Origin: Psychrobacter ciconiae
Lineage (GTDB): Bacteria > Pseudomonadota > Gammaproteobacteria > Pseudomonadales > Moraxellaceae
Assembly (NCBI RefSeq): GCF_904846055.1
Contig: NZ_CAJGYV010000001.1
Location: 124,001 to 188,000 of the forward strand
Reading direction: 5' to 3'
DNA length: 64,000 nucleotides
The notes under the pieces are model-generated. The model did not search any database and was not told the origin of the DNA. It saw only the letters and a program-made list of their open reading frames with translations. The translations under genes and the position numbers were made by a program. Positions within the stretch are counted from its first letter, which is position 1. The number at the start of each line of letters is the position of its first letter. This document shows positions 1,203 to 44,470 of this stretch, one piece after another.

Positions 1203-1480
1203 TGCCGTAAAACCATGCCGTTCAGGGCGTGGATATCAGGCATTGCTATGATTTGGTATGTTTGCTAATATGAGGTTGTTGCGTTGATTCAGCCAGTAGG
1301 CTGGCGTGACATGGTAACACCCTAAATACCTCCTAGTTTGTGGCGTGTCTTTTGACAATCCTAACGGTAGCCACAATATTAGAATAAGACCTAAGCATCA
1401 TGGTATTAGCAGAGGTCGCGGTCGGGCTTGACCGTCTAGCTGTAGGAATCCCCTCTCTTTAGAGAGGGGAGGAAGTCAAA
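1203..1480. mobile_element. Non-autonomous IS605/TnpB-type element (~278 bp) inserted in tpsA
   Basis: The left end (from about 1204, GCCGTAAAACCATGCCG, then a GGCGTGGATATCAGGC segment) and the right end (1426-1480, GGTCGGGCTTGACC hairpin, GGAATCCCCTC, then GTCAAA) match the ends of the tnpB-carrying element at 18272-19506. The roughly 185 bp between the ends do not resemble tnpB. The terminal hairpin has changed on both arms relative to the larger copy (CTCTC/GAGAG versus CTCAC/GTGAG), so the fold is conserved while the sequence is not. The exact ends are uncertain by a few bases; 1203-1480 is chosen because its removal restores the tpsA reading frame. Confidence 0.75.
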
Positions 1481-4400
1481 GTTGGCAAAGGCAGGATCGG
1501 TTTCAATTAAATAACTGGCTTTGCTGTCAGGATTGATGCCGTACAGGCTGCTGTTTGGTAAGGTCGGCGCATCGCTGCTGCTGCGAATCTCATCGGTTGG
1601 CGCTTTAGTGATTTGTTGGCTGACCGCATTTTCGACATCATGAGCAATGACGGTTTTATCTAGGTTTTGATCTAAGATCGGTAGCTGATAAGTGTCTATT
1701 CTTTCAGGCGCCTCAATATAAGCACCTAAGTTGTCTGTTACAATTTTATGTTTGCTGCCTGTCAGCCCTGAAGATTCGACATGCCGGTAAACCACGTTAC
1801 CATCTTCAATATACTTGGTCTTAAACCCTTGCAGATCTGATTCGCCGATATGGTTTACCGTATCACCAGTAACTAAAAACCCTTCACCCAGTCCAAGCTG
1901 ACTTTTATCATTGTTAAGCTGATTTCCTCGTAGGGTAATGACGCCACCTGCGATGATTCTAGAGGGGTCTGAGATGACCGTTTTATCCTCAGTGATGCGC
2001 TCATTGAAATTAAAAATGTAGAAATCTTCACCACCGCTTGCCCCTAATGGCTGATTGGTTGCGATAACGTAAAGATCTTCTTTATCAAGTTTTTTATCAT
2101 CGCGTAGCTCTACTTCGCTTTCATCATATTTCTTACCCTCTTTACTGTCTGCATACTGATATTTATTCTTATTCTCTTCGATAGTAAATTCTTGAGATTC
2201 AAAGTCGGCATTCACATTATGAAGGACATCGGTGCTGATGGTCATATCACCGACAGATTCAATAGAAGCGCCTTTATTAGTGACGGTAGCGGCGCGGCCT
2301 GTCGCCTGCATATTGGCATCTAAGCTGCCACCAATATGCAGATCACCATTACTAAGCAGTCGCGCTTGACCATTAAAATCGGTATTAAACTGACCCGCGC
2401 GCCCCTGATTGGGATTATTGTTTAGGGTAGTGACGCCGATATCAAGACGCGCTCTTGCTGCAATGATGGGGGCCGTCTGCTTGCTATCGGGCGTGTTGTT
2501 TAGGCTGGCGGCTGCTATGGCGACATGATCGCCGTAGATACGGCCGCGGCTGCTGTTATTGACGTTATTATCGGCTTTTAGATACGTATTGATGCCATTA
2601 ATCAGTCCCTGATTGTTAATATCGGTTTTTGCGGTTAAGGCAGTGGCGCCATTACTGATAAGCTCAGCGCCTTTTTGATTGTCAATACGCTTTGCTTGAA
2701 CGGTCAGCCCATTTTGCCCAGATAATTTGCCGCTGTTACTAAAGCGGCCTTGCGTCGTTAAGGTAAGATTGCCTGCTTGAATATCATCACTGCTACTATT
2801 AATGGCGATATCATCAAAGACGTTGATGTCAACGCGGTTCACGCCGATGATCGTGCCATCAGTATTGCTCAAGCCTTGAGCGTTAATTGTCAGATTTTTA
2901 TCGCTTTGAATACGACCTTTAGTGTTAGTCAGATTGCCACGGTTATCAAGGGTGATATTTTCTTGACTGCTAAGCACGCCTTTTGTGTTATCAAGCGCTA
3001 AGCTTTGCGTGGTTATGGTGCCGTTAGCTTGTATGGGGCCTTGGGTGTTATCAATCTGATTGTGCGCGTTAAGAGCAATATTACCTAAAGCTGCTATAGT
3101 GCCTTGGTTGTTGTTCATTTGATCGGCTGAGGTAATGGCAATATCTTTAGTCGCCGTAATCTGACCATTTTGGTTATCAAAGGTTGCCAACTGCCAATCG
3201 ATGTTCTCAAGCTGCAAACGGCTATCGGTATTGGTAAGACTGCCATTATTAGCCATATCTAAGCGATTGAGCGCTAAGCTTGATTTGCCTTGATTTACTA
3301 CGGTGTCGGCGGCAAGGTTAATGTTGCTATTGGCATATAAACGGCCGGTATTGGTAAAGCTTTGGGTATTAATACGGCCATTTTGAGTGATTATAGGAAG
3401 CGGTTCAGACGTAGGATCAGAGGGCGCACTACCGGTCATGGTATCAACCGTACTGCCATTGTTAGCCGTTGTAGGCGGCGTTTTGGTAGGAATTACTGTG
3501 GGCGGAATACTGGCGTCAGCATATAAATTTTGACCGATAATGCCGCCTTGTTGATTAACCAAAGCACTGGTATTAATCGCCAACTGACCACTGCCAGTTT
3601 GCAGTAATTCACCGCTATTGTTTAGAGCGTTAGCCTTGATATCAAAGCTACCAGATGAGATCTCACCTAGGTTATCGATAGCGCTTATTTGCTGTAAGCT
3701 TAAGGCACCTTGGCTACTGATGACACCGCTGTTAGTTAAGGTACTGCTATTTAGCGTGGCGGCATCACGAGAGCTGGCAATTGTCCCTAGGTTATTAATG
3801 CTAAAGCCTTTGGTTGCGATATCAACCTTACCTTGGTTAGCAATCAGGCTTCCTGAATTGGTCAAATTACCATGACTGTCAAGCTTTAAGCTGCCTGTGC
3901 TTGCAACGATGCTACCGGCGTTGGTGACGCCCATGCCTTTTTCGGTGCCAATCAGTCGTATTTTTCCGGCATACATGCCGCCAAGCGCTGAGACGTCTAA
4001 GGCGGCGCCGGTGGCTTGATTGTCAAGGTTGGCCGCGCTTTTTGGGGTGATAACCGTGGCTGCAGCATCAGGCTCATAGCTGACTTTATTGCTACCGGTG
4101 ATGACATCTAAATTGTTGGCATAAATCGCAGCATTAATTTCAGAGGTTTTAGCGATGATTTGGGTGTAGTTAGCGCCAGTAGTGTCTAATCCGTTGCCAT
4201 CAATACGAACCTTACCGCCTGTTACGTCAAAGCCGGTAAGTTTGCCTTGATCCATCAAAGCATTACCGGTGGTGAGTGTGGTTCGCGCAGCATTGATAAA
4301 TCCGCAACCTGAGCAGCTGATTCCTGCAGGGTTGGCAATCACAAGCTCAGCGTTACCGCCTGCAATTTCGGTATAGCCGGTAAGACGGCTTGGGTCACTT

Positions 4401-4933
4401 GAGTTGACTTCATTTAAAATAACGCGGGCTTCACCGCGAGCAAGGTAGGGGTTGCCCTCAATCCATCCGGCAAGCTGGGTTTGGGCGTTTTTTCGGCTGT
4501 TGTTGATGATGGCGCCATCAGAGCCGACATCAAATTGACTAAAGACGTTACGCGATACCCCAGCGGCGCTGGGGCTTTGAATATTGATTTGCGTGGTGCC
4601 ATTTGCGGCGCTTAGAATTACTGCTTGCTGATTGGCCAAAGCTTGACGATCGGCGATGATGGTTGTGGTATCGGCATGGACGTTTTGACTGATTCCGGCG
4701 CTACTTACCACGAGGGTGGCAAGCCCTAAGGCAAGTAATAGTTGCGCGCGCAGCGTTATCAATCGGCCGCCGCGATAGTGGCTATTGGTTTGGGGAGCAC
4801 CTGCTACTTGGCTTATGTTACTGCCACCTTGAGCAGGATTTCTTGTTTTTCCTTGAGCGCGCGCTGCTTCTGAAACCACCTTGAGCATTCCACGTGCTTT
4901 GTTAAAGATAACTCGGTAGCATTGAGCGTTCAT
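1436..4933 (-). pseudogene. TpsA-type filamentous haemagglutinin/adhesin, N-terminal part (interrupted)
   Basis: Secreted exoprotein of a two-partner (type Vb) secretion system. Residues 1-30 (MNAQCYRVIFNKARGMLKVV...) are an extended signal peptide region, and a hydrophobic signal core follows at about residues 62-80, ending ..NVHAD. The TPS recognition domain follows, with a Gln-Leu-Ala-Gly-Trp-Ile-x-Gly-Asn-Pro stretch and NPAGISCSGCGFIN. Then come beta-helix repeats rich in Asn, Gly and Leu. The last ten or so residues (FLPSLKRGDSYS) are not adhesin sequence; they are read from the right end of the inserted IS605-type element, which supplies the stop. The protein is thus cut off at about 1,150 residues. 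It lies 94 bp downstream of the tpsB remnant, the usual B-A order. Confidence 0.85.
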
Positions 4934-5027: not shown

Positions 5028-6542
5028 TTAGTATTGCCAACCTAAGCTAAATCCTGTCACCCAGTCTTTGTCGCTGAAACGATCCGGCTGAGCTAGGGGG
5101 TATCCTGCAAATAAGTCATAGCTGGTTTTTATAGGCGCCACATAGCCTTTGACGCCAACGACGCCGCCGATTAGGTGGTGACCTAGCAAAAGGTCGTCTT
5201 GCTCATTTTGGTCAAGCTTGACGTAACCTGCGTCAATGCCGGTATAGATGGCGTGGGGCTTATCGCCAAGATAGGCGCTGATTTCTTGTCTTAGCAGCGC
5301 CCCATGATCGCCACTTAAGCTGCGATTACCATCAAAGCCGCGAACGCTATAGCGGCCGCCAATAACAAAGCGCTCACTTGGCACTAAGGCTTGGTTGGCA
5401 TATTGACCTTTAAAGGCGGCATGATAATTGAGCGCTTTATCAGCAAGCTTGATGGGCCGGTTGATGTCAATGCTGGTTTTGATGATACCGGCACGGGCGC
5501 TGCCTTCGTTAAATAAGGCTTCAGGTGGGCTTAGGGCATTAAGCGCACCTGTGCCGCGCTGATATATGATGTCGCCAATCCATTGCGATTTGCCAATGAC
5601 CGTTTCGTAGCCAATTCCTGCTTTATATCCTGCTATTCGGCGACGCTGAACGTCAATTTCGGTGTCATCGATGTAGTTATTTTGCTTTTTGGTAAAGCCG
5701 CCTGCTTTGAGGTAGGTTTGGCTGTGATTGTCACGATGAATCAGATGATTGATGGCAGCTTCTGTGTTGTAAGACTCTCCGCTGTAAACATAATCTTGAT
5801 TGGCGCCTGCGATGGTTTGGTCATAGTTGTAGCCGCTATGAGTTAGGGTCAGCTGAGTGTTATCAATGGGCAATACATAACCGATGTTATAGCCCCAGCT
5901 GCCGTCATTTTTGTCATTGCCGCCATCAAGATCATGGTTGTAAGATAGGTATAACAAGTCGTTGTGCCACGTTGGGTTATCAAGGGATAAGGTGATATTG
6001 CCTTGATAGGTGCCTGTGCTGTCTTGGCCTGAGTCGTCAATTGTGGCAGATAAGCGCCAGTTTTTGTTTTGGCGCCAGTTGACTTGAATGTCACTGTAGC
6101 CAGGATTTGTAATACGGCGGCTTGGGGCGATTGCGAAATCTGCGTCCGCTGTTGGCACACGTTTGAAGTTTTCAAGCGCCTGCTCAATATCACGAATGTT
6201 AAGCAGGTCGCCTGAAATCATTGGCATGGCGGGTGCAAAGTTGGCAGGGTTGCCTTGAGCATCGGTGTAGATGGGGCGCTTGGCTTTGATGTCGAGGGCT
6301 TCAATTTGATCAATTCGTCCTGGAATTACGGTGAGCGCAAGTTTTCCTGAGTTAAGGTTTTGATTTTCAATGACGACCCTTGTTGTCACGTAACCTTTTT
6401 CAATAATACGGTTTTGAACGTTGGTGACCAGTTGGTTGATGTCATTGACCGATAAGCAGCGGCCAAGAATTGAGTCTTTTTTTGCGATAAATGGAAGTAA
6501 AGCAAAGTTAAATGTGGCGCTTGATTCCCCAGTGAGATAAAG
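5028..6542 (-). pseudogene. TpsB/ShlB-FhaC-type outer-membrane transporter, 5'-truncated
   Basis: The protein matches TpsB transporters that export the TpsA partner. It has a POTRA-like region (ILGRCLSVNDINQLV, then IIEKGYVTTRVV and the VIPGRI segment) followed by a C-terminal 16-strand barrel with FVIGGRYSVRGFDG, the conserved loop-6 VRGF/Y-type motif. The frame is open only to 6542, where a TAG (6543-6545) stands just before LYLTGES, inside the POTRA fold. There is no signal peptide and no plausible start with a ribosome site. A GTG at 6389 is the first common start codon but sits in the middle of the conserved KGYVTTR motif. The gene therefore seems to have lost its signal peptide and first POTRA strands and is probably dead. 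Confidence 0.8.
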
Positions 6543-6556
6543 CTAACTAAATTGCT

Positions 6557-6751
6557 TCAGGATTGTTGCATTTCCTCAGAATGTTGAGTCTGCGACAATA
6601 CTGGGTAGGGCAGTTCATTAGTAACAACAGCTCCTGTGCCTCCAAGTATCATATATAGTGCTATGTAGCCAACTTTTTCTAATTTAGGTCTTTCAAGACA
6701 TTTTTTTGGTGTCGAGTTACAAGCAAAGATCGTTCTATTTCGAGCCTCCAA
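6557..6751 (-). pseudogene. Possible remnant of the 5' end of tpsB (signal-peptide-like ORF)
   Basis: A 64-codon ORF immediately upstream of the tpsB remnant, in another frame. Its second half has a hydrophobic stretch (YIALYMILGGTGAVV) followed by a polar Gln/Glu-rich tail (LSQTQHSEEMQQS). That is the layout of a TpsB signal peptide and the Gln-rich stretch before POTRA 1. Only about 15 bp separate its stop from the open part of tpsB. A deletion plus frameshift linking the two is an inference; the similarity is weak and the ORF could be chance. Confidence 0.3.
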
Positions 6752-6759
6752 AGATATTA

Positions 6760-7140
6760 GAAGCTTTTCGATATCCTGATTAAATTTTATCGTATCTTTT
6801 CAGACTTAAATCTACCGAGATGCCAAGTAGGAACATTGTTAGAATTTGTGTACGTTCTTATCAGTGATATAGACTAATAGGCATCCAGAAGAATCATTGC
6901 TTTTACTTTAAACTTATTGTCACTTGATGGCGAATACTTCTGCACCTAGCGTAGTTCAAGCAAATTCGCATTAATAAGGAAGTCGGCTAAGCTACCAGCA
7001 ATCGATTGATGAGTGTTTTAGTTATTAGGTGATGATGAGCAGAACAAGTTCATCGAACAGATTAAGTCTAACTTATGAAGTTAATGTCAGGTAGCTTCAG
7101 TTTAACATAATATACATTATGCGAATAAGATGCTAATAAA
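6760..7140. other. AT-rich spacer without a recognisable gene
   Basis: Between the tpsB remnant and the small ORF at 7177-7326 nothing longer than short, unconvincing ORFs is seen on either strand. No tRNA-like fold or tandem repeat was noticed. It probably contained the original tps promoter region and decayed with the locus. Confidence 0.5.
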
Positions 7141-7142
7141 AC

Positions 7143-7168
7143 AAAGTGGCATTATCGCCACTTTTTTA
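7143..7168. terminator. Bidirectional rho-independent terminator
   Basis: AAAGTGGC (7143-7150), a 6-nt loop, and GCCACTTT (7157-7164) form a perfect stem followed by T residues on the plus strand. On the minus strand a T-rich tract follows the stem, directly after the 49-codon ORF at 7177-7326. Confidence 0.75.
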
Positions 7169-7176
7169 ACGACCGC

Positions 7177-7326
7177 TTACTTACAGTTATCCGTTAGATA
7201 ATCTTGCAACGACCCAATGCCATCTAACGTTACATCATTTATTTTGCAAGTGTCGCCATGGCAATCAACATCATAATCAACCTTACTGTCGTGGTTTAAT
7301 TGCGCGCTCACCCGATCGTATTGCAT
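7177..7326 (-). CDS. Small hypothetical acidic protein (49 aa)
   Basis: ATG at 7326, stop at 7177-7179. The product is 49 residues, acidic, with three Cys (DCHGDTC and a C-terminal DNCK) and many Asp residues. It is followed within 10 bp by a good terminator, and a long nested palindrome starts 21 bp upstream of its ATG. That boxed-in layout is the main reason to take it as a gene. The ribosome site is weak (GGA about 9 nt before the ATG). No family is recognised. The Cys/Asp pattern might bind metal, but that is speculation. Confidence 0.4.
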   Translation of the reverse strand: MQYDRVSAQLNHDSKVDYDVDCHGDTCKINDVTLDGIGSLQDYLTDNCK

Positions 7327-7346
7327 GGTATTTCCAATCGATATTA

Positions 7347-7397
7347 CAAATCGCTAATTGTGTAAAATTATTACAACACAATTGGCACGGCGATTTG
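7347..7397. promoter_or_regulatory. Nested inverted repeat, candidate operator
   Basis: CAAATCGC (7347-7354) and AATTGTGT (7356-7363) are mirrored by ACACAATT (7376-7383) and GCGATTTG (7390-7397). The inner arms are perfect with a 12-nt AT-rich centre. It sits between the 49-codon ORF (minus strand) and the lipoprotein gene at 7598, so it could be an operator of either or a folded leader RNA. Confidence 0.5.
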
Positions 7398-7597
7398 TTG
7401 TGCAATCGTTGAATTCAGGTTGGTTTATCACTCATTGAAAAATAAGGCTTTTTTGCCTAAATCCTCATCTTAAACAGCGCTGACTCAATCGGTCGATCTT
7501 TTTAGGACAAAAAGGCAAATTATCTAATAAATACTACAATTCAGATCGCAATTTTGATTATGATATCAATTAACCCCTTTATTATTAAGGACTTATT

Positions 7598-31719: not shown

Positions 31720-34700
31720 CTACTGATTTAGTGCGGCAATGTCATTTAAAATGACCAGCAGCATGGTGGTGGTTATGGTAAGTCCGGTCAGCTCGTCAAT
31801 TTGGGATTGAAGATTGCTAAGCGCTGATTGATTGCTGAGCTGCCACTGCTCAAAGGTCTGCTTGGGGTTTTCGGAGCTCAAAAGCTGCGTCATCAGCATT
31901 CGAAGTTGCCGCGACAGTCCCGAACTTAACGCCTGAACCGCTCGGCGCTCCCAAAGGCTGTCTTGGGGCAGCTTGGCGATTTGCGCCATCATCCAATCTA
32001 TTTTTAAGCACTGATACACCTCAAAGTATAGCGGCGCAATGGCGGCAACGTTCGCGTTATATTTTTCTGCCAATAACGTGGCGTCTAGCGCATCGGCGCG
32101 ATAAGGCATCATGGCAAAGGTTGCTGCTGCCGCGCTTGGGATGCCTTGGTCGATAAGGTCTTGGGTATCTTGGCTTAAATTGGCGGCAAAATGCTGCTCG
32201 ATAAAGCCGCCTTGTTTGACCAAGTCGCTAGCACTGGTTCCAAAGCGCGAAATCATATCGCTAACGTTTAGCTCATCGTTAAAGTTGCTTAAGAACCATA
32301 ACATTGCGCGAGATTGGAAATTGCGAAGTTTGATTTCAAGTTGCAACAGCGCTTTGGCAGAGACGATATTGTCAAGCGATTCAAGTATTTGCCAAGCTTC
32401 ACTGATGGCAAAAATATCGCGGGTGATGGCATAAGCGCGAATAATGCTGGCAAGACTTTGACCACTTTGCTCAAAAATTTCAAACACCGTTTCGATGCCT
32501 AAGCGGTTAACGATGCTGTTGGTCAAATAGGTGCTGATGATTTCGCGGTGCAAGGGATGCTGCTGCATTTCCTCAAAATAGCGCGTGACCAACTCGCTTG
32601 GGAAATATTTTTTTAATTCCTTACTAAAATAGGCGTCATCAGGAACGCTTGAGGCTAAAATATGGTCGTAAACCCACATTTTGCCATACGCCATGACGAC
32701 GGCAATTTCAGGATGACTTAAGCCCTCACCTGATTTTTGGCGGCGCGCGATTTGCTCATGGCTTGGCAAATATTCAATGGCGCGGTCAAGCCGACCCTCC
32801 ATTTCTAAATGCTCAATGATGCGCTGATGGGTGGCAAGATTAGCAGCAGCATTTTGCGCACTAAGTTCAATTGCTTGCGGCTGTAAGTAGTTTTGGCGCA
32901 GTACCAATTTTGCCACGCTGTCGGTCATTTTTGCTAATAGCTCATTGCGGTCAGTTTCGCTTAATTGACCTTTTGCCACGACATCACCAAGCAAAATCTT
33001 GATGTTGACTTCATGGTCTGAGCAGTTAACGCCCGCTGAATTGTCAATGGCATCGGTATAAATACGACCGCCATTTCGCGCAAATTCAATGCGACCTTGT
33101 TGGGTGAAGCCAAGGTTTCCGCCCTCGCCAACGATACGCGCTTGCAAATCTTCGCCATTCACTCGAACTGCATCGTTAGCGCGGTCACCAACATCGCTAT
33201 TGGTCTCATTTGCGCTTTTGACATACGTGCCAATACCGCCATTCCAAAGCAGATCGACTGGCGCACAAAGCAGCTTTGAAATCAGCTCGTTGGGCGTTAA
33301 TTGATCGGCATCAATGGCAAATGCCGCTTTCATCTCATCGGTGATGGTGATGGCTTTGTCCGCTCGGGAAAATACGCCGCCGCCTTGACTGATTAATTTT
33401 TTATCATAATCCTCCCAAGTGGAGCGCGGCAATTCAAACAGACGCTTGCGCTCTTGATAAGACGCCGCGCAATCAGGATTGGGGTCAATAAAAATATGCA
33501 AATGGTTGAATGCCGCAAGCAGCTTGGTGTGTTTGGACTGCAGCATGCCATTGCCAAACACATCGCCGCTCATATCACCAACGCCAACCACGCTAAAGTC
33601 ATCGCGGTTTTGAATATCACGACCCAGCATTCGAAAATGGCGCTTTACCGACTCCCAAGCGCCGCGAGCGGTGATTCCCATCGCTTTATGGTCATAGCCC
33701 ACCGAGCCGCCCGAAGCAAACGCGTCCCCAAGCCAAAAGCCATATTCAGCCGCCAGCGCATTGGCAATGTCGGAAAACTTTGCCGTCCCTTTATCGGCGG
33801 CAACGACCAAATATGGGTCGTCGTCATCGTGGCGGACAACGTCTTTTGGTGGCACGATGTTGCCATCAATAATATTGTCGGTGATATCGAGCATTCCGCG
33901 TAAAAACGCTTGATAACATGCTACGCCCTCGGCTAAAAAGGCATCGCGGTCACTGGCATCAACCTCTGATTTGACGATAAAGCCGCCTTTGGAGCCGACC
34001 GGAACGATGACCGCGTTTTTGACCATTTGCGCTTTGACCAGCCCCAAAACTTCGGTTCGAAAGTCCTCGCGTCTGTCCGACCAGCGCAGTCCGCCGCGAG
34101 CGACTTTGCCGCCGCGAAGATGAACCGCTTCCACTTTTGGCGAATACACAAAGATTTCAAACATCGGCTTGGGTTTTGGCAAGTTTGGAATGTCACTTGC
34201 CAAAAACTTAAAGGACAATCTATCTTTGCGCTTGCCGTTTTCGGTTTGATAAAAATTGGTTCGCGCCATGGCGTTAATTAAATCCAAATACCAGCGCAAA
34301 ATTTGCTCTTCATCTAAGCGCTCAACGCTTGCTAACTGCTCATTAAGGCTTGATTGCAACTTTTGTATCATGCTGTCGCGATTTTGCGCCGCTGGATTCA
34401 TTTTTGCGGCAAACAAATCAAACAAGTCAAGGCTGATGGCGCTATGTTTAATCAGCGTTTGTGTGATATACGCATTTGAAAAAGGTGCTTTGGCTTGGCG
34501 CATATATTTTGCCAGCGCTCGCAGCACGACGACGTCATAAGTATCCAATCTTGTGGTTAAAATCAGCTCGTTGAGCGCGTCATTTTCAACGCGACCTGAC
34601 CAAATTTCTTGCAGCGCGCCTTCAAATTGCGGCTGAACGACTGCCATATCGACGGTTTCGACATGGTCAAGAACCAATTCATAATCCTGAAGCCAAACTT

Positions 34701-35064
34701 TTGGGTCGCTTGTTAATTCATACGACTGCGCTTTAATCACTGACACGCCAAAATTTTCTAAAATTGGCAACACCTTGGTCAACATCAGCGGCTCATCAAG
34801 TCCAAACAGCTTTAAATGCAATCGGTTACAAGCTTCCGCCTCGCTTTGGTACAGATGCCAAATCAGCGCCTCATCGTTATTCAGCGCGGCAAGTTTTTGC
34901 AAATCTTGCGCTGCCACCGAACTGTCAAAGCGTTCATAATACGCCGCCGGAAGGTTTGGCAATAGCGATGTTGCCATGATATCGCGCTTGGCAACTGGCA
35001 GTTCACTTAAAATACGGTCGTGGTAAGCGGCGCGGCTTTGGTCGGACGATAGCGGATTTGACAT
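31720..35064 (-). CDS. Large NAD-dependent glutamate dehydrogenase (short, ~115-kDa class)
   Basis: About 1,114 residues. It has the catalytic core of bacterial large NAD-GDHs: AVHLRGGKVARGGLRWSDRREDFRTEVLGLVKAQMVKNAVIVPVGSKGGF with the substrate Lys, then FSVVGVGDMSGDVFGNGML, NGGIGTYVK and GEGGNLGFTQQGRIE in the nucleotide domain. It converts glutamate to 2-oxoglutarate and ammonia. The common 180-kDa class has ~1,600 residues with ACT-type N-terminal domains; this protein has a much shorter N-terminal part, like the known ~115-kDa class. ATG 35064 (MSNPLSS) follows AAAAAGG at good spacing and is preferred to 35082. No upstream coding remnant is seen. Confidence 0.88.
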   Translation of the reverse strand: MSNPLSSDQSRAAYHDRILSELPVAKRDIMATSLLPNLPAAYYERFDSSVAAQDLQKLAALNNDEALIWHLYQSEAEACNRLHLKLFGLDEPLMLTKVLPILENFGVSVIKAQSYELTSDPKVWLQDYELVLDHVETVDMAVVQPQFEGALQEIWSGRVENDALNELILTTRLDTYDVVVLRALAKYMRQAKAPFSNAYITQTLIKHSAISLDLFDLFAAKMNPAAQNRDSMIQKLQSSLNEQLASVERLDEEQILRWYLDLINAMARTNFYQTENGKRKDRLSFKFLASDIPNLPKPKPMFEIFVYSPKVEAVHLRGGKVARGGLRWSDRREDFRTEVLGLVKAQMVKNAVIVPVGSKGGFIVKSEVDASDRDAFLAEGVACYQAFLRGMLDITDNIIDGNIVPPKDVVRHDDDDPYLVVAADKGTAKFSDIANALAAEYGFWLGDAFASGGSVGYDHKAMGITARGAWESVKRHFRMLGRDIQNRDDFSVVGVGDMSGDVFGNGMLQSKHTKLLAAFNHLHIFIDPNPDCAASYQERKRLFELPRSTWEDYDKKLISQGGGVFSRADKAITITDEMKAAFAIDADQLTPNELISKLLCAPVDLLWNGGIGTYVKSANETNSDVGDRANDAVRVNGEDLQARIVGEGGNLGFTQQGRIEFARNGGRIYTDAIDNSAGVNCSDHEVNIKILLGDVVAKGQLSETDRNELLAKMTDSVAKLVLRQNYLQPQAIELSAQNAAANLATHQRIIEHLEMEGRLDRAIEYLPSHEQIARRQKSGEGLSHPEIAVVMAYGKMWVYDHILASSVPDDAYFSKELKKYFPSELVTRYFEEMQQHPLHREIISTYLTNSIVNRLGIETVFEIFEQSGQSLASIIRAYAITRDIFAISEAWQILESLDNIVSAKALLQLEIKLRNFQSRAMLWFLSNFNDELNVSDMISRFGTSASDLVKQGGFIEQHFAANLSQDTQDLIDQGIPSAAAATFAMMPYRADALDATLLAEKYNANVAAIAPLYFEVYQCLKIDWMMAQIAKLPQDSLWERRAVQALSSGLSRQLRMLMTQLLSSENPKQTFEQWQLSNQSALSNLQSQIDELTGLTITTTMLLVILNDIAALNQ

Positions 35065-35416
35065 AGTGGTGACCTTTTTCATCAGATTTTGTTTTTAATT
35101 ATTAAAAATAATTACACGAGTCGTTATCAAAATTAGCTTTTAATCTCAGATTTATTAAAAGTGAGCGTTAAGCTTTTGACCTAAGAAAGTGTAACGCAAG
35201 CCGGCATTTTAAGGGCGTTATTAACATCATTTCATGAATGGTTATAATGATGATAACCTTTATTAACAAGACAGATTACCATGCAAATCGCTGAATCATC
35301 TGCCGTTTTTAAGGGAATTTTGTTAGAATAATGCTCAACTCGTTTAGCGCTACTTTTTGCATCATTTTTTTGGCAGCGTTATCAATAGCAATATTACTCA
35401 TAAAGGGCAACTTATC

Positions 35417-42139: not shown

Positions 42140-42613
42140 TTAAGGGTCATGAAGCTCGATTTGGACAAGCTCGCCCTGCCCTTGCTCAGTTAAATAGTGC
42201 ATGACCGGCGATTTTAAAATCAGTGATTTTGCGGCAGCTTGAGCTTGAGCAAGGCGCTGATTTTTTCGTTGATATGGCGTATCATTTCTCATTGACATCA
42301 AATTTTCATCAAAAAGCAATTTAATGTGAGCGTTTGGAAATTGCTCATGTATTTTTTCTGCTAACTGATTAAAAGTAGTTTGCAAATGGCGGCTATCAAC
42401 CGCGGTATGAAACGTCGCCGCCCCGTGACATTCGCCTACCATGATGCCCTGCCGCGCCAGCGCCAATTCATCCGCAGCAAGTAGCCCCTCAGCGCGAGCC
42501 GATTGTAGCCAATAGTCCCATTTGTCCGGCGACCATTGACCGTTTAATTCTTGCGGCGGACAATGTAGCAGTTCGCGTGGGTCGTTCATTAATAACTGAG
42601 AATCATTTCGCAC
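42140..42613 (-). CDS. dnaX: DnaX tau-specific C-terminal domain (separated by frame disruption)
   Basis: The product has the polymerase III tau C-terminal region: LNGQWSPDKWDYWLQSARAEGL, LALARQGIMVGECHG, FHTAVDSRHLQTTFNQLAEKI and QAQAAAKSLILKSPVMHYLTEQGQGELVQIEL. In E. coli this part binds DnaB and the alpha subunit. It is in the same genomic frame as the N-terminal ORF (42770-44470) but is cut off from it by stop codons in the 12-bp repeat tract. The ATG at 42613 is just the first Met after the repeats; residues upstream (EPVRND...) are still in frame, so it is unlikely to be a true start. Confidence 0.8.
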   Translation of the reverse strand: MRNDSQLLMNDPRELLHCPPQELNGQWSPDKWDYWLQSARAEGLLAADELALARQGIMVGECHGAATFHTAVDSRHLQTTFNQLAEKIHEQFPNAHIKLLFDENLMSMRNDTPYQRKNQRLAQAQAAAKSLILKSPVMHYLTEQGQGELVQIELHDP

Positions 42614-42621
42614 CGGCTCAA

Positions 42622-42936
42622 GGTTCGGCTCAAGGTTCGGCTCAAGGTTCGGCTCAAGGTTCGGCTCAAGGTTCGGCTCAAGGTCGGCTCAAGGTTCGGC
42701 TCAAGGTTCGGCTCAAGGTTCGGCTCAAGGTTCGGCTCAAGGTTCGGCTCAAGGTTCGCTCAGTTCGGCTCAGGTTCGGCTCAAGGTTCGGCTCAAGGTT
42801 CGGCTCAAGGTTCGGCTCAAGGTTCGGCTCAGGTTCGGCTCAAGGTTCGGCTCAAGGTTCAGCTCTAGGTTCGGCTCAAGGTTCGACTCAAGGTTCGGCT
42901 CAAGGTTCGGCTCAAGGTTCGGCTCAAGGTTCGGCG
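42622..42936. repeat. 12-bp tandem repeat tract in dnaX (about 26 copies)
   Basis: The unit on the plus strand is GGTTCGGCTCAA; in the dnaX reading direction it encodes Leu-Glu-Pro-Asn. There are 26 units over 42622-42927 (306 bp, six bases short of 26 x 12). Units starting at 42682 and 42821 lack one base, and the pair at 42753-42772 lacks four (one each of G, A, G and A). Two others carry substitutions (42856 and 42880). In coding order the frame goes NLEP, then LSRT, then a frame with repeated TGA, and back to NLEP before the C-terminal domain. Confidence 0.95.
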
Positions 42937-44470
42937 AAACTGCTTGATTTAGGATTTGATCACTTTGATTTGCCGAAACCGTTTCGTTACTGCTTTGATG
43001 ATTTGCAAAAGTATTTGACGCTAAATTTGGTTCAGAAGCATCGGCATAATTTTCGCTAAAACTTTCCGGACCTATCCTGACATCTTCGCTACCATAAGAA
43101 AGCGTTTCAAAGCTTGGAGTCTCTAAATTATTATCGGATAAAGTTTCGTTTTGATTATGAATGTCAAAGTTATTTTGGCTTGCAAAATTTTCCGGCGCTG
43201 AATGCTCTGAATGCTTTAACTTTGCCGTTATCGCTAAATCATTCTCCGAGCGGCTTTGCTCATTAACACCCAATTGCGCATTTTGATTTTGCGCTGACTG
43301 ATGCTGTATAAAACTTTCGTCTTGAATTGGTTGCGACACACTAGGGGCAACATCAATCATTTCATCAAGACCAAGTGGTCGAAATGCCAATAGCCGTAAA
43401 ATGCACATTTCAAGCGCTTGCATCGGTGTATTAGCAAGCTTCATTGCCTCGCGCGCCTGAACAACGATTTCATAATACAACTGAAGCACGTCAGGTGACA
43501 TGGCTTGCGCAAGCTTGGTGATTTGCGCGGCTTGCACTTCATTGACGTTTAGCGCAACTTGGGGTAATAATTGAGTGAGCGCAAGCTGGTGCAACAACTC
43601 CGCTAAGCCATCAAACATGCTTGCCGAATCGACCATTTGCTGCCGCAACTGCTCAATGTGCCGTGCGACCGCAGCTTTATCATTTTGATAAATATCGGCA
43701 ATCAGGCGCACCAAATCCGCCGAATCAATCAGCCCAAGCATGGCGTTTACCGTCTCATCATCAAGATAACCTTGACCAAAGGCAATCGCTTGGTCGGTCA
43801 AGGATAACGCATCACGGACCGAGCCTTTTGCCGCATGAGCCAATTGCCAAAGTGCCGGCTGAGTGAACGAAATCTGCTCTTGGGTCAAAATATTGCCCAA
43901 ATGTTCGCTAAGTAAAGCTTGCTGCAATGGCCGCAATACAAACTGCAAGCAGCGCGAAATGATGGTAATCGGCAATTTTTGCGGGTCGGTGGTCGCCAGC
44001 AAAAACTTCACGTGAGCCGGCGGCTCTTCAAGTGTTTTTAGCAGCGCGTTAAAGCTGTGCGTTGAGAGCATGTGAACTTCGTCAATGAGGTACACTTTAT
44101 AGCGCCCCTGACTTGGGGCATAGGGCACATTGTCAAGCAGCTCGCGGGTGTCCTCAACCTTGGTTCGAGACGCCGCGTCAATCTCGATTAAATCGATAAA
44201 GCGACCTCGGTCGATCGCCACGCAGTGCTCGCAAACGCCACAAGGGGTACTGGTCACGCCCGTATCGCAGTTCAAGCACTTGGCTAAAATTCGCGCTATC
44301 GTCGTTTTGCCAACGCCGCGCGTTCCGGTGAACAAATACGCGTGATGCAGCCGGTTATAATCGATGGCGTTGATAAGCGCTTGAGAAACGTGCGACTGCC
44401 CGATTAACTCATGAAAGTTTTTTGGGCGATATTTTCGGGCTAATACTTGATATTGCGGCGTCATAGTCAT
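42770..44470 (-). CDS. dnaX: DNA polymerase III clamp-loader subunit DnaX, N-terminal (gamma-like) part
   Basis: 566 residues as encoded. AAA+ clamp-loader ATPase with Walker A GTRGVGKTT (residues 49-57), zinc ligands Cys66/77/80/83, Walker B LIDEVHML, sensor SRC motif (IISRCLQFVLRP) and domain III. After about residue 370 comes a long Asn/Glu/Ser-rich linker and then NLEP repeats that shift into LSRT repeats and stop at TGA 42770-42772. The translated product would resemble gamma without the tau C-terminus. Because tau is needed to bridge helicase and polymerase, the disruption is either real with recoding, or a sequence error in the repeat. Confidence 0.9.
   Translation of the reverse strand: MTMTPQYQVLARKYRPKNFHELIGQSHVSQALINAIDYNRLHHAYLFTGTRGVGKTTIARILAKCLNCDTGVTSTPCGVCEHCVAIDRGRFIDLIEIDAASRTKVEDTRELLDNVPYAPSQGRYKVYLIDEVHMLSTHSFNALLKTLEEPPAHVKFLLATTDPQKLPITIISRCLQFVLRPLQQALLSEHLGNILTQEQISFTQPALWQLAHAAKGSVRDALSLTDQAIAFGQGYLDDETVNAMLGLIDSADLVRLIADIYQNDKAAVARHIEQLRQQMVDSASMFDGLAELLHQLALTQLLPQVALNVNEVQAAQITKLAQAMSPDVLQLYYEIVVQAREAMKLANTPMQALEMCILRLLAFRPLGLDEMIDVAPSVSQPIQDESFIQHQSAQNQNAQLGVNEQSRSENDLAITAKLKHSEHSAPENFASQNNFDIHNQNETLSDNNLETPSFETLSYGSEDVRIGPESFSENYADASEPNLASNTFANHQSSNETVSANQSDQILNQAVSPNLEPNLEPNLEPNLESNLEPNLELNLEPNLEPNLSRTLSRTLSRTLSRTLSRT

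What the first reader, a model, noticed from the sequence alone, without database searches (positions are those of the whole stretch)
42613..42936. dnaX is broken and then re-framed inside a 26-copy 12-bp tandem repeat
In coding order the repeats start as Leu-Glu-Pro-Asn. An 11-bp unit at 42821-42831 shifts them to LSRT, and the TGA at 42772-42770 stops translation. Further reading crosses several TGAs, then the 11-bp unit at 42682-42692 restores the original frame before the tau-specific domain (42140-42613). The total deficit over the tract is exactly six bases, so both ends share a frame. As written, only a gamma-like DnaX is made. Possible readings: indel errors in a hard-to-sequence repeat; a phase-variable length polymorphism that sets the gamma/tau ratio; or ribosomal slippage within the repeats. 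A variable repeat in an essential replisome gene is unusual in any case.
Basis: partly seen in the sequence, partly recalled or inferred. Interest (0 to 1): 0.82.

Follow-up and report, generated by a model that had tools for sequence, protein, structure and literature searches.

The report
Repeat-built linker in DnaX
A gene of the DNA-copying machinery carries a long run of 12-letter repeats that looks broken in this assembly; relatives show that such repeats are normal there and kept readable, so the break is most likely a sequencing error inside an otherwise unusual, length-variable protein tether.

Summary
A 322-bp array of a 12-bp unit (27.3 copies) lies in dnaX just before its C-terminal tau domain. 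Five of its 26 units are 10 or 11 bp long (six bases short in total). The frame breaks, meets TGA at 42772-42770 and returns before the tau domain.

Of 98 Psychrobacter genomes with the tau domain (this one included), 57 have a complete array in this linker. All 57 have units of 6, 12 or 18 bp and 54 are open. In 23 more the contig ends inside the linker.

Whole-unit gain or loss cannot shift the frame, so phase variation by copy number is excluded. No conserved slippery site was found. The two arrays over 300 bp, this one and P. aestuarii, have single-base indels only in their interior. The break is most likely a consensus error, though no raw reads were available.

What remains is a fast-turning coding minisatellite forming an acidic tether between clamp loader and tau domain. 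By one threshold it is present in 73 of 98 Psychrobacter, 7 of 20 other Moraxellaceae and 2 of 68 others of the order.

The parts
42770..44470 (-). dnaX ORF as assembled (566 aa): clamp-loader ATPase, lid, domain III, upstream linker, first part of the array
   Evidence: Pfam PF13177, PF22608, PF12169 all above curated cut-offs
42936..43390 (-). non-repeated part of the DnaX linker after domain III
   Evidence: from the end of the conserved N-terminal part to the array
42614..42935 (-). tandem array, 12-bp unit (coding strand GAGCCGAACCTT), 27.3 copies, Leu-Glu-Pro-Asn in the dnaX frame
42831..42841 (-). short unit (11 bp), first loss of frame
42772..42782 (-). short unit (11 bp)
42762..42771 (-). 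short unit (10 bp)
42751..42761 (-). short unit (11 bp)
42680..42690 (-). short unit (11 bp), after which the dnaX frame is regained
42770..42772 (-). TGA that ends the assembled dnaX ORF
42140..42613 (-). C-terminal tau domain of DnaX (157 codons), same frame as the dnaX start
   Evidence: found in 98 of 100 genomes of the genus, this one included; profile relation to DnaX C-termini of other Pseudomonadales

Best explanation
The tract is a coding minisatellite: an in-frame array of Glu/Pro-rich units that forms the linker (tether) between the clamp-loader part of DnaX and its C-terminal tau domain. It turns over by whole-unit gain and loss, which keeps the frame because units are multiples of three bases. 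In the living cell the frame is most likely open and full-length tau is made. The five short units in this assembly are most likely consensus errors left in the interior of an array too long for short reads to anchor. Shown: the array, its genus-wide presence, unit lengths, homogeneity, copy-number differences and open frames in relatives. Inferred: that the short units are errors, that tau is required here, and that the array acts as an extended acidic tether.
For: 1) Of 98 genomes with the tau domain (this one included), 57 have a complete array (TRF score 60 or more, 3 or more copies); units are 18 bp (44), 12 bp (10) or 6 bp (3); 54 of 57 are open. In 23 more the contig ends in the linker, 2 have an N gap and 16 have no array. 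2) The three broken ones are this assembly, JCM 18903 (Ion Torrent PGM, passages of PMC3974947) and P. glacincola BNF20 (Illumina mate pairs, passages of PMC5822837). 3) Two arrays exceed 300 bp: this one (322) and P. aestuarii (335). P. aestuarii has one lost and one gained base, both near its middle. Its source study describes short reads plus, for fragmented genomes, Nanopore hybrids (passages of PMC8546975). 4) Here the outermost 94 bp (upper end) and 66 bp (lower end) have no indels; all five short units lie among units 8-21 of 26 (chance 0.03, post hoc). 5) Units 7-26 hold no substitution but six missing bases, all in two-base runs; mutational decay should leave substitutions too. 6) 36 of 57 arrays are 100% self-identical. 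Of 25 genome pairs with N-terminal dnaX DNA at least 97% identical, 19 differ by at least one copy; without the two suspect drafts, 9 of 13 (pairs not independent).
Against: No raw reads were available and the sequencing method of this genome is unknown. The assembly is otherwise good (2 contigs, completeness 99.9). BNF20 does not fit the length argument: its array is only 154 bp, yet one interior unit is five bases longer than the rest. The two short units of JCM 18903 lie at the start of its array, not in the interior. A net loss of exactly six bases, restoring the frame, is what a functional gene might show, though one in three random sums does so. That tau is essential is recalled for E. 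coli and inferred for this genus. That P. aestuarii SC35 was among the hybrid assemblies is inferred from its single 2.78-Mb contig. 16 of 98 genomes have no array, so the array itself is dispensable.
Confidence: 0.82

Rival explanations
1. The short units are real in this strain: dnaX makes only a gamma-like product and the C-terminal domain is lost or supplied in some other way.
For: The sequence as assembled reads so, in a 2-contig assembly of 99.9% completeness.
Against: The tau domain is found in 98 of 100 genomes of the genus, this one included. Here its frame is open for 157 codons and it is 43-57% identical to the ten genus-mates aligned, so it shows no sign of decay. Pol III-tau contact matters in E. 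coli (passages of PMC11869525).
Confidence: 0.06
2. Phase variation: array length toggles tau on and off and so sets the gamma/tau ratio.
For: The array is long and copy number varies between species.
Against: All 57 complete arrays have units of 6, 12 or 18 bp, so unit gain or loss never shifts the frame. Phase-variable repeats described in PMC3711429 (passages) use homopolymers or units such as AGTC. Only indels not divisible by three could toggle it; among the complete arrays these were seen in four: three broken and one (P. aestuarii) that stays open.
Confidence: 0.04
3. Recoding: ribosomes or RNA polymerase slip inside the array, so tau is made from the broken frame, as proposed for the two-ORF dnaX genes of Chlorobium.
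For: dnaX is a known recoding gene, and a dnaX type whose tau needs recoding has been described (PMC3711429, passages; PMC5009743, passages).
Against: Several compensating shifts would be needed across five short units and seven in-frame stops. AAAAAAG occurs in 1 of 75 linkers not cut by a contig end, and a run of 9 A in 1 of 75. AAAAAAG is absent from the window gene, which has one AAAAAAC near its start. Most relatives with a complete array have it open (54 of 57).
Confidence: 0.03
4. On function, not exclusive of the main reading: the repeat is a neutral by-product of slippage in a floppy linker, with no role for its length or composition.
For: 16 of 98 genomes lack an array. Linkers range from 53 to 298 aa over 70 genomes. 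Units differ between lineages.
Against: 53 of 54 open arrays have no Lys, Arg or His and 54 of 54 are at least 15% acidic. Other Moraxellaceae have different units that also hold acidic residues. At the same threshold arrays are rare elsewhere in the order (2 of 68).
Confidence: 0.4

Closest known systems
E. coli DnaX tau/gamma
   Same: Clamp-loader ATPase, lid and domain III followed by a linker and a C-terminal domain.
   Different: No A_AAA_AAG frameshift site here; much of the linker is a tandem array; Pfam's tau domain V model does not match.
Two-ORF dnaX genes that need recoding for tau (Chlorobium type, PMC3711429, passages)
   Same: A dnaX whose tau part is cut off by a frame break at DNA level.
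   Different: There a conserved poly-A site in several species; here no such run, and relatives are open.
Phase-variable simple-sequence contingency loci
   Same: Tandem repeats inside a gene with a frame break.
   Different: Unit is a multiple of three, the product is not a surface protein, and there is no evidence of switching.
Coding minisatellites / intragenic VNTRs with in-frame units
   Same: In-frame units, near-identical copies, copy number differing between relatives.
   Different: Sits in a replisome gene and is found in the same linker with unrelated units in other genera of the family.

Membership tests
DnaX (clamp loader gamma/tau) | ATPase, lid and domain III of DnaX | tested here: met
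   PF13177 144.9 bits, PF22608 79.5, PF12169 77.5, all above cut-off
tau C-terminal domain (domain V) | C-terminal part of the same dnaX frame in relatives | tested here: met
   matches in 98 of 100 genus genomes, many in single open frames of 582-840 aa
tau C-terminal domain (domain V) | homology to DnaX C-termini of other Pseudomonadales | tested here: met
   profile of 52 DnaX C-termini finds the window domain at E 6.1e-6 in a set of 18 sequences; hhalign probability 91, E 1.2e-6 for the one pair
tau C-terminal domain (domain V) | Pfam PF12170 above its cut-off | tested here: not met
   no match in the window genome; two Acinetobacter relatives match below cut-off, E 5.1e-4 and 6.5e-4
tau C-terminal domain (domain V) | fold match to a solved tau structure | tested here: inconclusive
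   model pLDDT 86; no PDB match at E 0.001 or better, no tau entry among the 50 rows shown
tau C-terminal domain (domain V) | binding to Pol III alpha | not testable with these tools
   needs protein work
E. coli-type programmed frameshift dnaX | A_AAA_AAG slippery site in the linker | tested here: not met
   absent in the window gene; in 1 of 75 linkers of the genus not cut by a contig end
Phase-variable repeat locus | unit length not divisible by three, so copy number shifts the frame | tested here: not met
   12 bp here; 6, 12 or 18 bp in 57 of 57 complete arrays
Phase-variable repeat locus | frame differs among cells of one strain | not testable with these tools
   one genome per species held
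Coding minisatellite / intragenic VNTR | near-identical in-frame units with copy number differing between relatives | tested here: met
   36 of 57 arrays 100% self-identical; 19 of 25 close pairs differ by a copy or more, 9 of 13 without the suspect drafts G056 and G087
Coding minisatellite / intragenic VNTR | copy number differs within a species | not testable with these tools
   one genome per species held

The most novel reading that the evidence does not exclude
The DnaX linker of Psychrobacter and its family is an evolvable tether. Fast, frame-safe gain and loss of acidic repeat units resizes the connection between clamp loader and polymerase, letting lineages tune replisome coupling within few generations. 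Independent arrays with different units (6, 9, 12, 15, 18 bp) arose in the same linker because tether length or charge is selected.
Probability: 0.3. Interest if true: 0.7.

Novelty: new variant of a known kind. Interest (0 to 1): 0.42.

Why it matters
As a broken essential gene, the finding probably dissolves. It is also a warning: contigs end in this linker in 23 of 98 Psychrobacter genomes, and the longest arrays probably carry false frameshifts. What remains is a core replication protein whose tether is rebuilt by minisatellite turnover, with different units in different genera. It offers natural variants (linkers of 53 to 298 aa over 70 genomes) for testing how the clamp loader-polymerase connection works. 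I saw no paper on repeats in dnaX of this family in these searches, judged from titles and abstract starts: dnaX with Psychrobacter (3 papers), dnaX with tandem repeat and tau, dnaX with VNTR, dnaX with minisatellite, Psychrobacter with tandem repeats and coding (10 of 18 listed), dnaX with tandem repeats and Moraxella (none). The library holds open-licence papers only.

Tried and rejected
Slippery-site search for programmed frameshifting: nothing conserved. Pfam and PDB sequence search for the tau domain: no significant hit. PDB fold search: no convincing hit; the C-terminal profile comparison worked instead, though the Moraxella lacunata row fell below its inclusion line (E 0.011). Search for other long arrays in the same genome as an internal error control: none in the 464 kb looked at, so this control could not be made. 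Rfam over the window: one tRNA only. Paper searches for DnaX linker features gave none or three papers. Same-species strains could not be compared, as each collection holds one genome per species.

Full report
What is there. The window lies in a 2.48-Mb, 2-contig genome of completeness 99.9. Its genus-mates are Psychrobacter: contigs found by the genome search have the same lengths as named Psychrobacter contigs. On the minus strand, dnaX starts at 44470. Its N-terminal part carries the DnaX ATPase, lid and domain III. A 455-base non-repeated linker follows, then a 322-bp array of a 12-bp unit (42935-42614, 27.3 copies), then a 157-codon domain (42613-42140). Five of 26 units are 10 or 11 bp long. 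The frame changes at each, TGA at 42772-42770 ends the ORF, and the frame is back before the last domain.

What the last domain is. It is present in 98 of 100 genomes of the genus, this one included (G070 and G084 had no match). Pfam's tau domain V does not match it, and neither PDB sequences nor PDB folds (model pLDDT 86) gave a significant hit. But two Acinetobacter relatives match PF12170 below its cut-off (E 5.1e-4 and 6.5e-4). A profile of 52 DnaX C-termini from other Pseudomonadales finds the window domain at E 6.1e-6 in a set of 18, and aligns with the genus profile at E 1.2e-6. I call it the tau C-terminal domain; alpha binding is inferred.

Relatives. I examined the linker in all 98 genomes with a match. 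At a threshold of TRF score 60 and 3 copies, 57 have a complete array, 2 an array with an N gap, 23 a contig end in the linker (20 of these show array copies) and 16 no array. Unit lengths of the 57 are 18 bp (44), 12 bp (10) and 6 bp (3). The commonest encodes EPEPVV (26 of 54 open arrays). Most arrays lie within a few bases of the tau domain; three lie 177 to 523 bases away (G071, G068, G021). 54 of 57 are open. One of the 54 (G058, strain WY6) has a frame break further upstream in the gene. Another (G052, P. aestuarii) stays open although it has a lost and a gained base close together.

Turnover. 36 of 57 arrays are 100% self-identical by TRF, while consensus units differ between species. 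Of 25 genome pairs whose dnaX N-terminal DNA is at least 97% identical, 19 differ by at least one copy. Leaving out the 12 pairs with the suspect drafts G056 and G087, 9 of 13 differ. The pairs are not independent. This is the pattern of unit gain and loss with homogenisation.

Wider distribution. I fetched 20 linkers from two other genera of the family (6 of 6 listed for one genus, 14 of 20 for the other). Of these, 7 have an array of TRF score 120 or more with 9- or 15-bp units, such as VEN, LEN, INE/IDE, LNDES with QEIGN in one linker, and LTDDN. Of four named Moraxella loci, three show the same (M. lacunata, M. caprae, M. oblonga); two of these are the same contigs as unnamed ones. Two Acinetobacter loci had none. 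In 68 DnaX linkers from the order outside the family (28, 40), 2 reach the same threshold, both with 6-bp units, and one of these runs into a contig end. In Psychrobacter 73 of 98 reach it. Limits of this control: rows were taken from the top of a score-ranked list and not at random; one listed row near a contig start (G321) was passed over; and 5 of the 28 have a very short C-terminal part or run off a contig.

Why the break is probably an error. The frame is open in 54 of 57 arrays, and the three broken ones are suspect. JCM 18903 was read by Ion Torrent PGM (passages of PMC3974947). BNF20 was read from Illumina mate pairs (passages of PMC5822837). The third is this assembly. Of the 57, only this array (322 bp) and that of P. 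aestuarii (335 bp) exceed 300 bp. Both have single-base indels in their interior and clean ends, which is what would remain if short reads polished only as far as they could be anchored. The study behind the P. aestuarii isolate reports 150- and 250-base reads plus Nanopore hybrids for fragmented genomes (passages of PMC8546975); that SC35 was one of these is inferred. Among the 55 arrays of 275 bp or less, only the two suspect drafts have a broken frame. They do not fit the length argument themselves: BNF20 has one unit five bases too long inside a 154-bp array, and JCM 18903 has two short units at the start of its array (TRF reports no indel for the latter, so pairs of opposite indels elsewhere could have been missed). 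In the window array, units 7-26 have no substitution but six missing bases, all in two-base runs.

Why the other readings fail. Unit gain or loss of 6, 12 or 18 bases keeps the frame, so copy number cannot switch tau on and off. Recoding would need several shifts past seven stops. No E. coli-type slippery site is conserved (AAAAAAG in 1 of 75 linkers not cut by a contig end). Real loss of tau is unlikely, since the domain beyond the array is open for 157 codons and 43-57% identical to ten genus-mates.

What it may do. 53 of 54 open arrays lack basic residues and all 54 are at least 15% acidic. Glu-Pro repeats are expected to be extended (general knowledge). The C-terminal tau region links the clamp loader to polymerase and helicase through flexible linkers in E. 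coli (passages of PMC11869525). The array would then set the length of that tether. Whether length matters is untested, and 16 of 98 genomes manage without an array.

Verdict. The frame break is probably an artefact. The array is real, a coding minisatellite at an unusual place, recurrent in one bacterial family. I saw no paper on it in the searches named in Why it matters.

Noticed in passing
window 1436-4933 (-) and 5028-6389 (-): A two-partner secretion pair (TPS/ESPR protein and ShlB-type transporter); in the 1.2 kb upstream (6390-7597) the ORF selection kept no ORF of 80 aa or more.
   Followed up: no
window 31720-35082 (-): NAD-glutamate dehydrogenase of 1120 aa in which Pfam sees only the ACT3, HM3, catalytic and C-terminal parts; it looks like a short form without the usual N-terminal region (recalled).
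   Followed up: no
L183 / L242 (Moraxella lacunata): Two separate 15-bp arrays with different units (15.3 and 12.1 copies) in one DnaX linker.
   Followed up: partly
   Followed up: no
   Followed up: partly
L317 (G290) and L294 (G308), outside the family: Hexanucleotide arrays (16.5 and 15.8 copies) in DnaX linkers of other Pseudomonadales; the first runs to a contig end.
   Followed up: no
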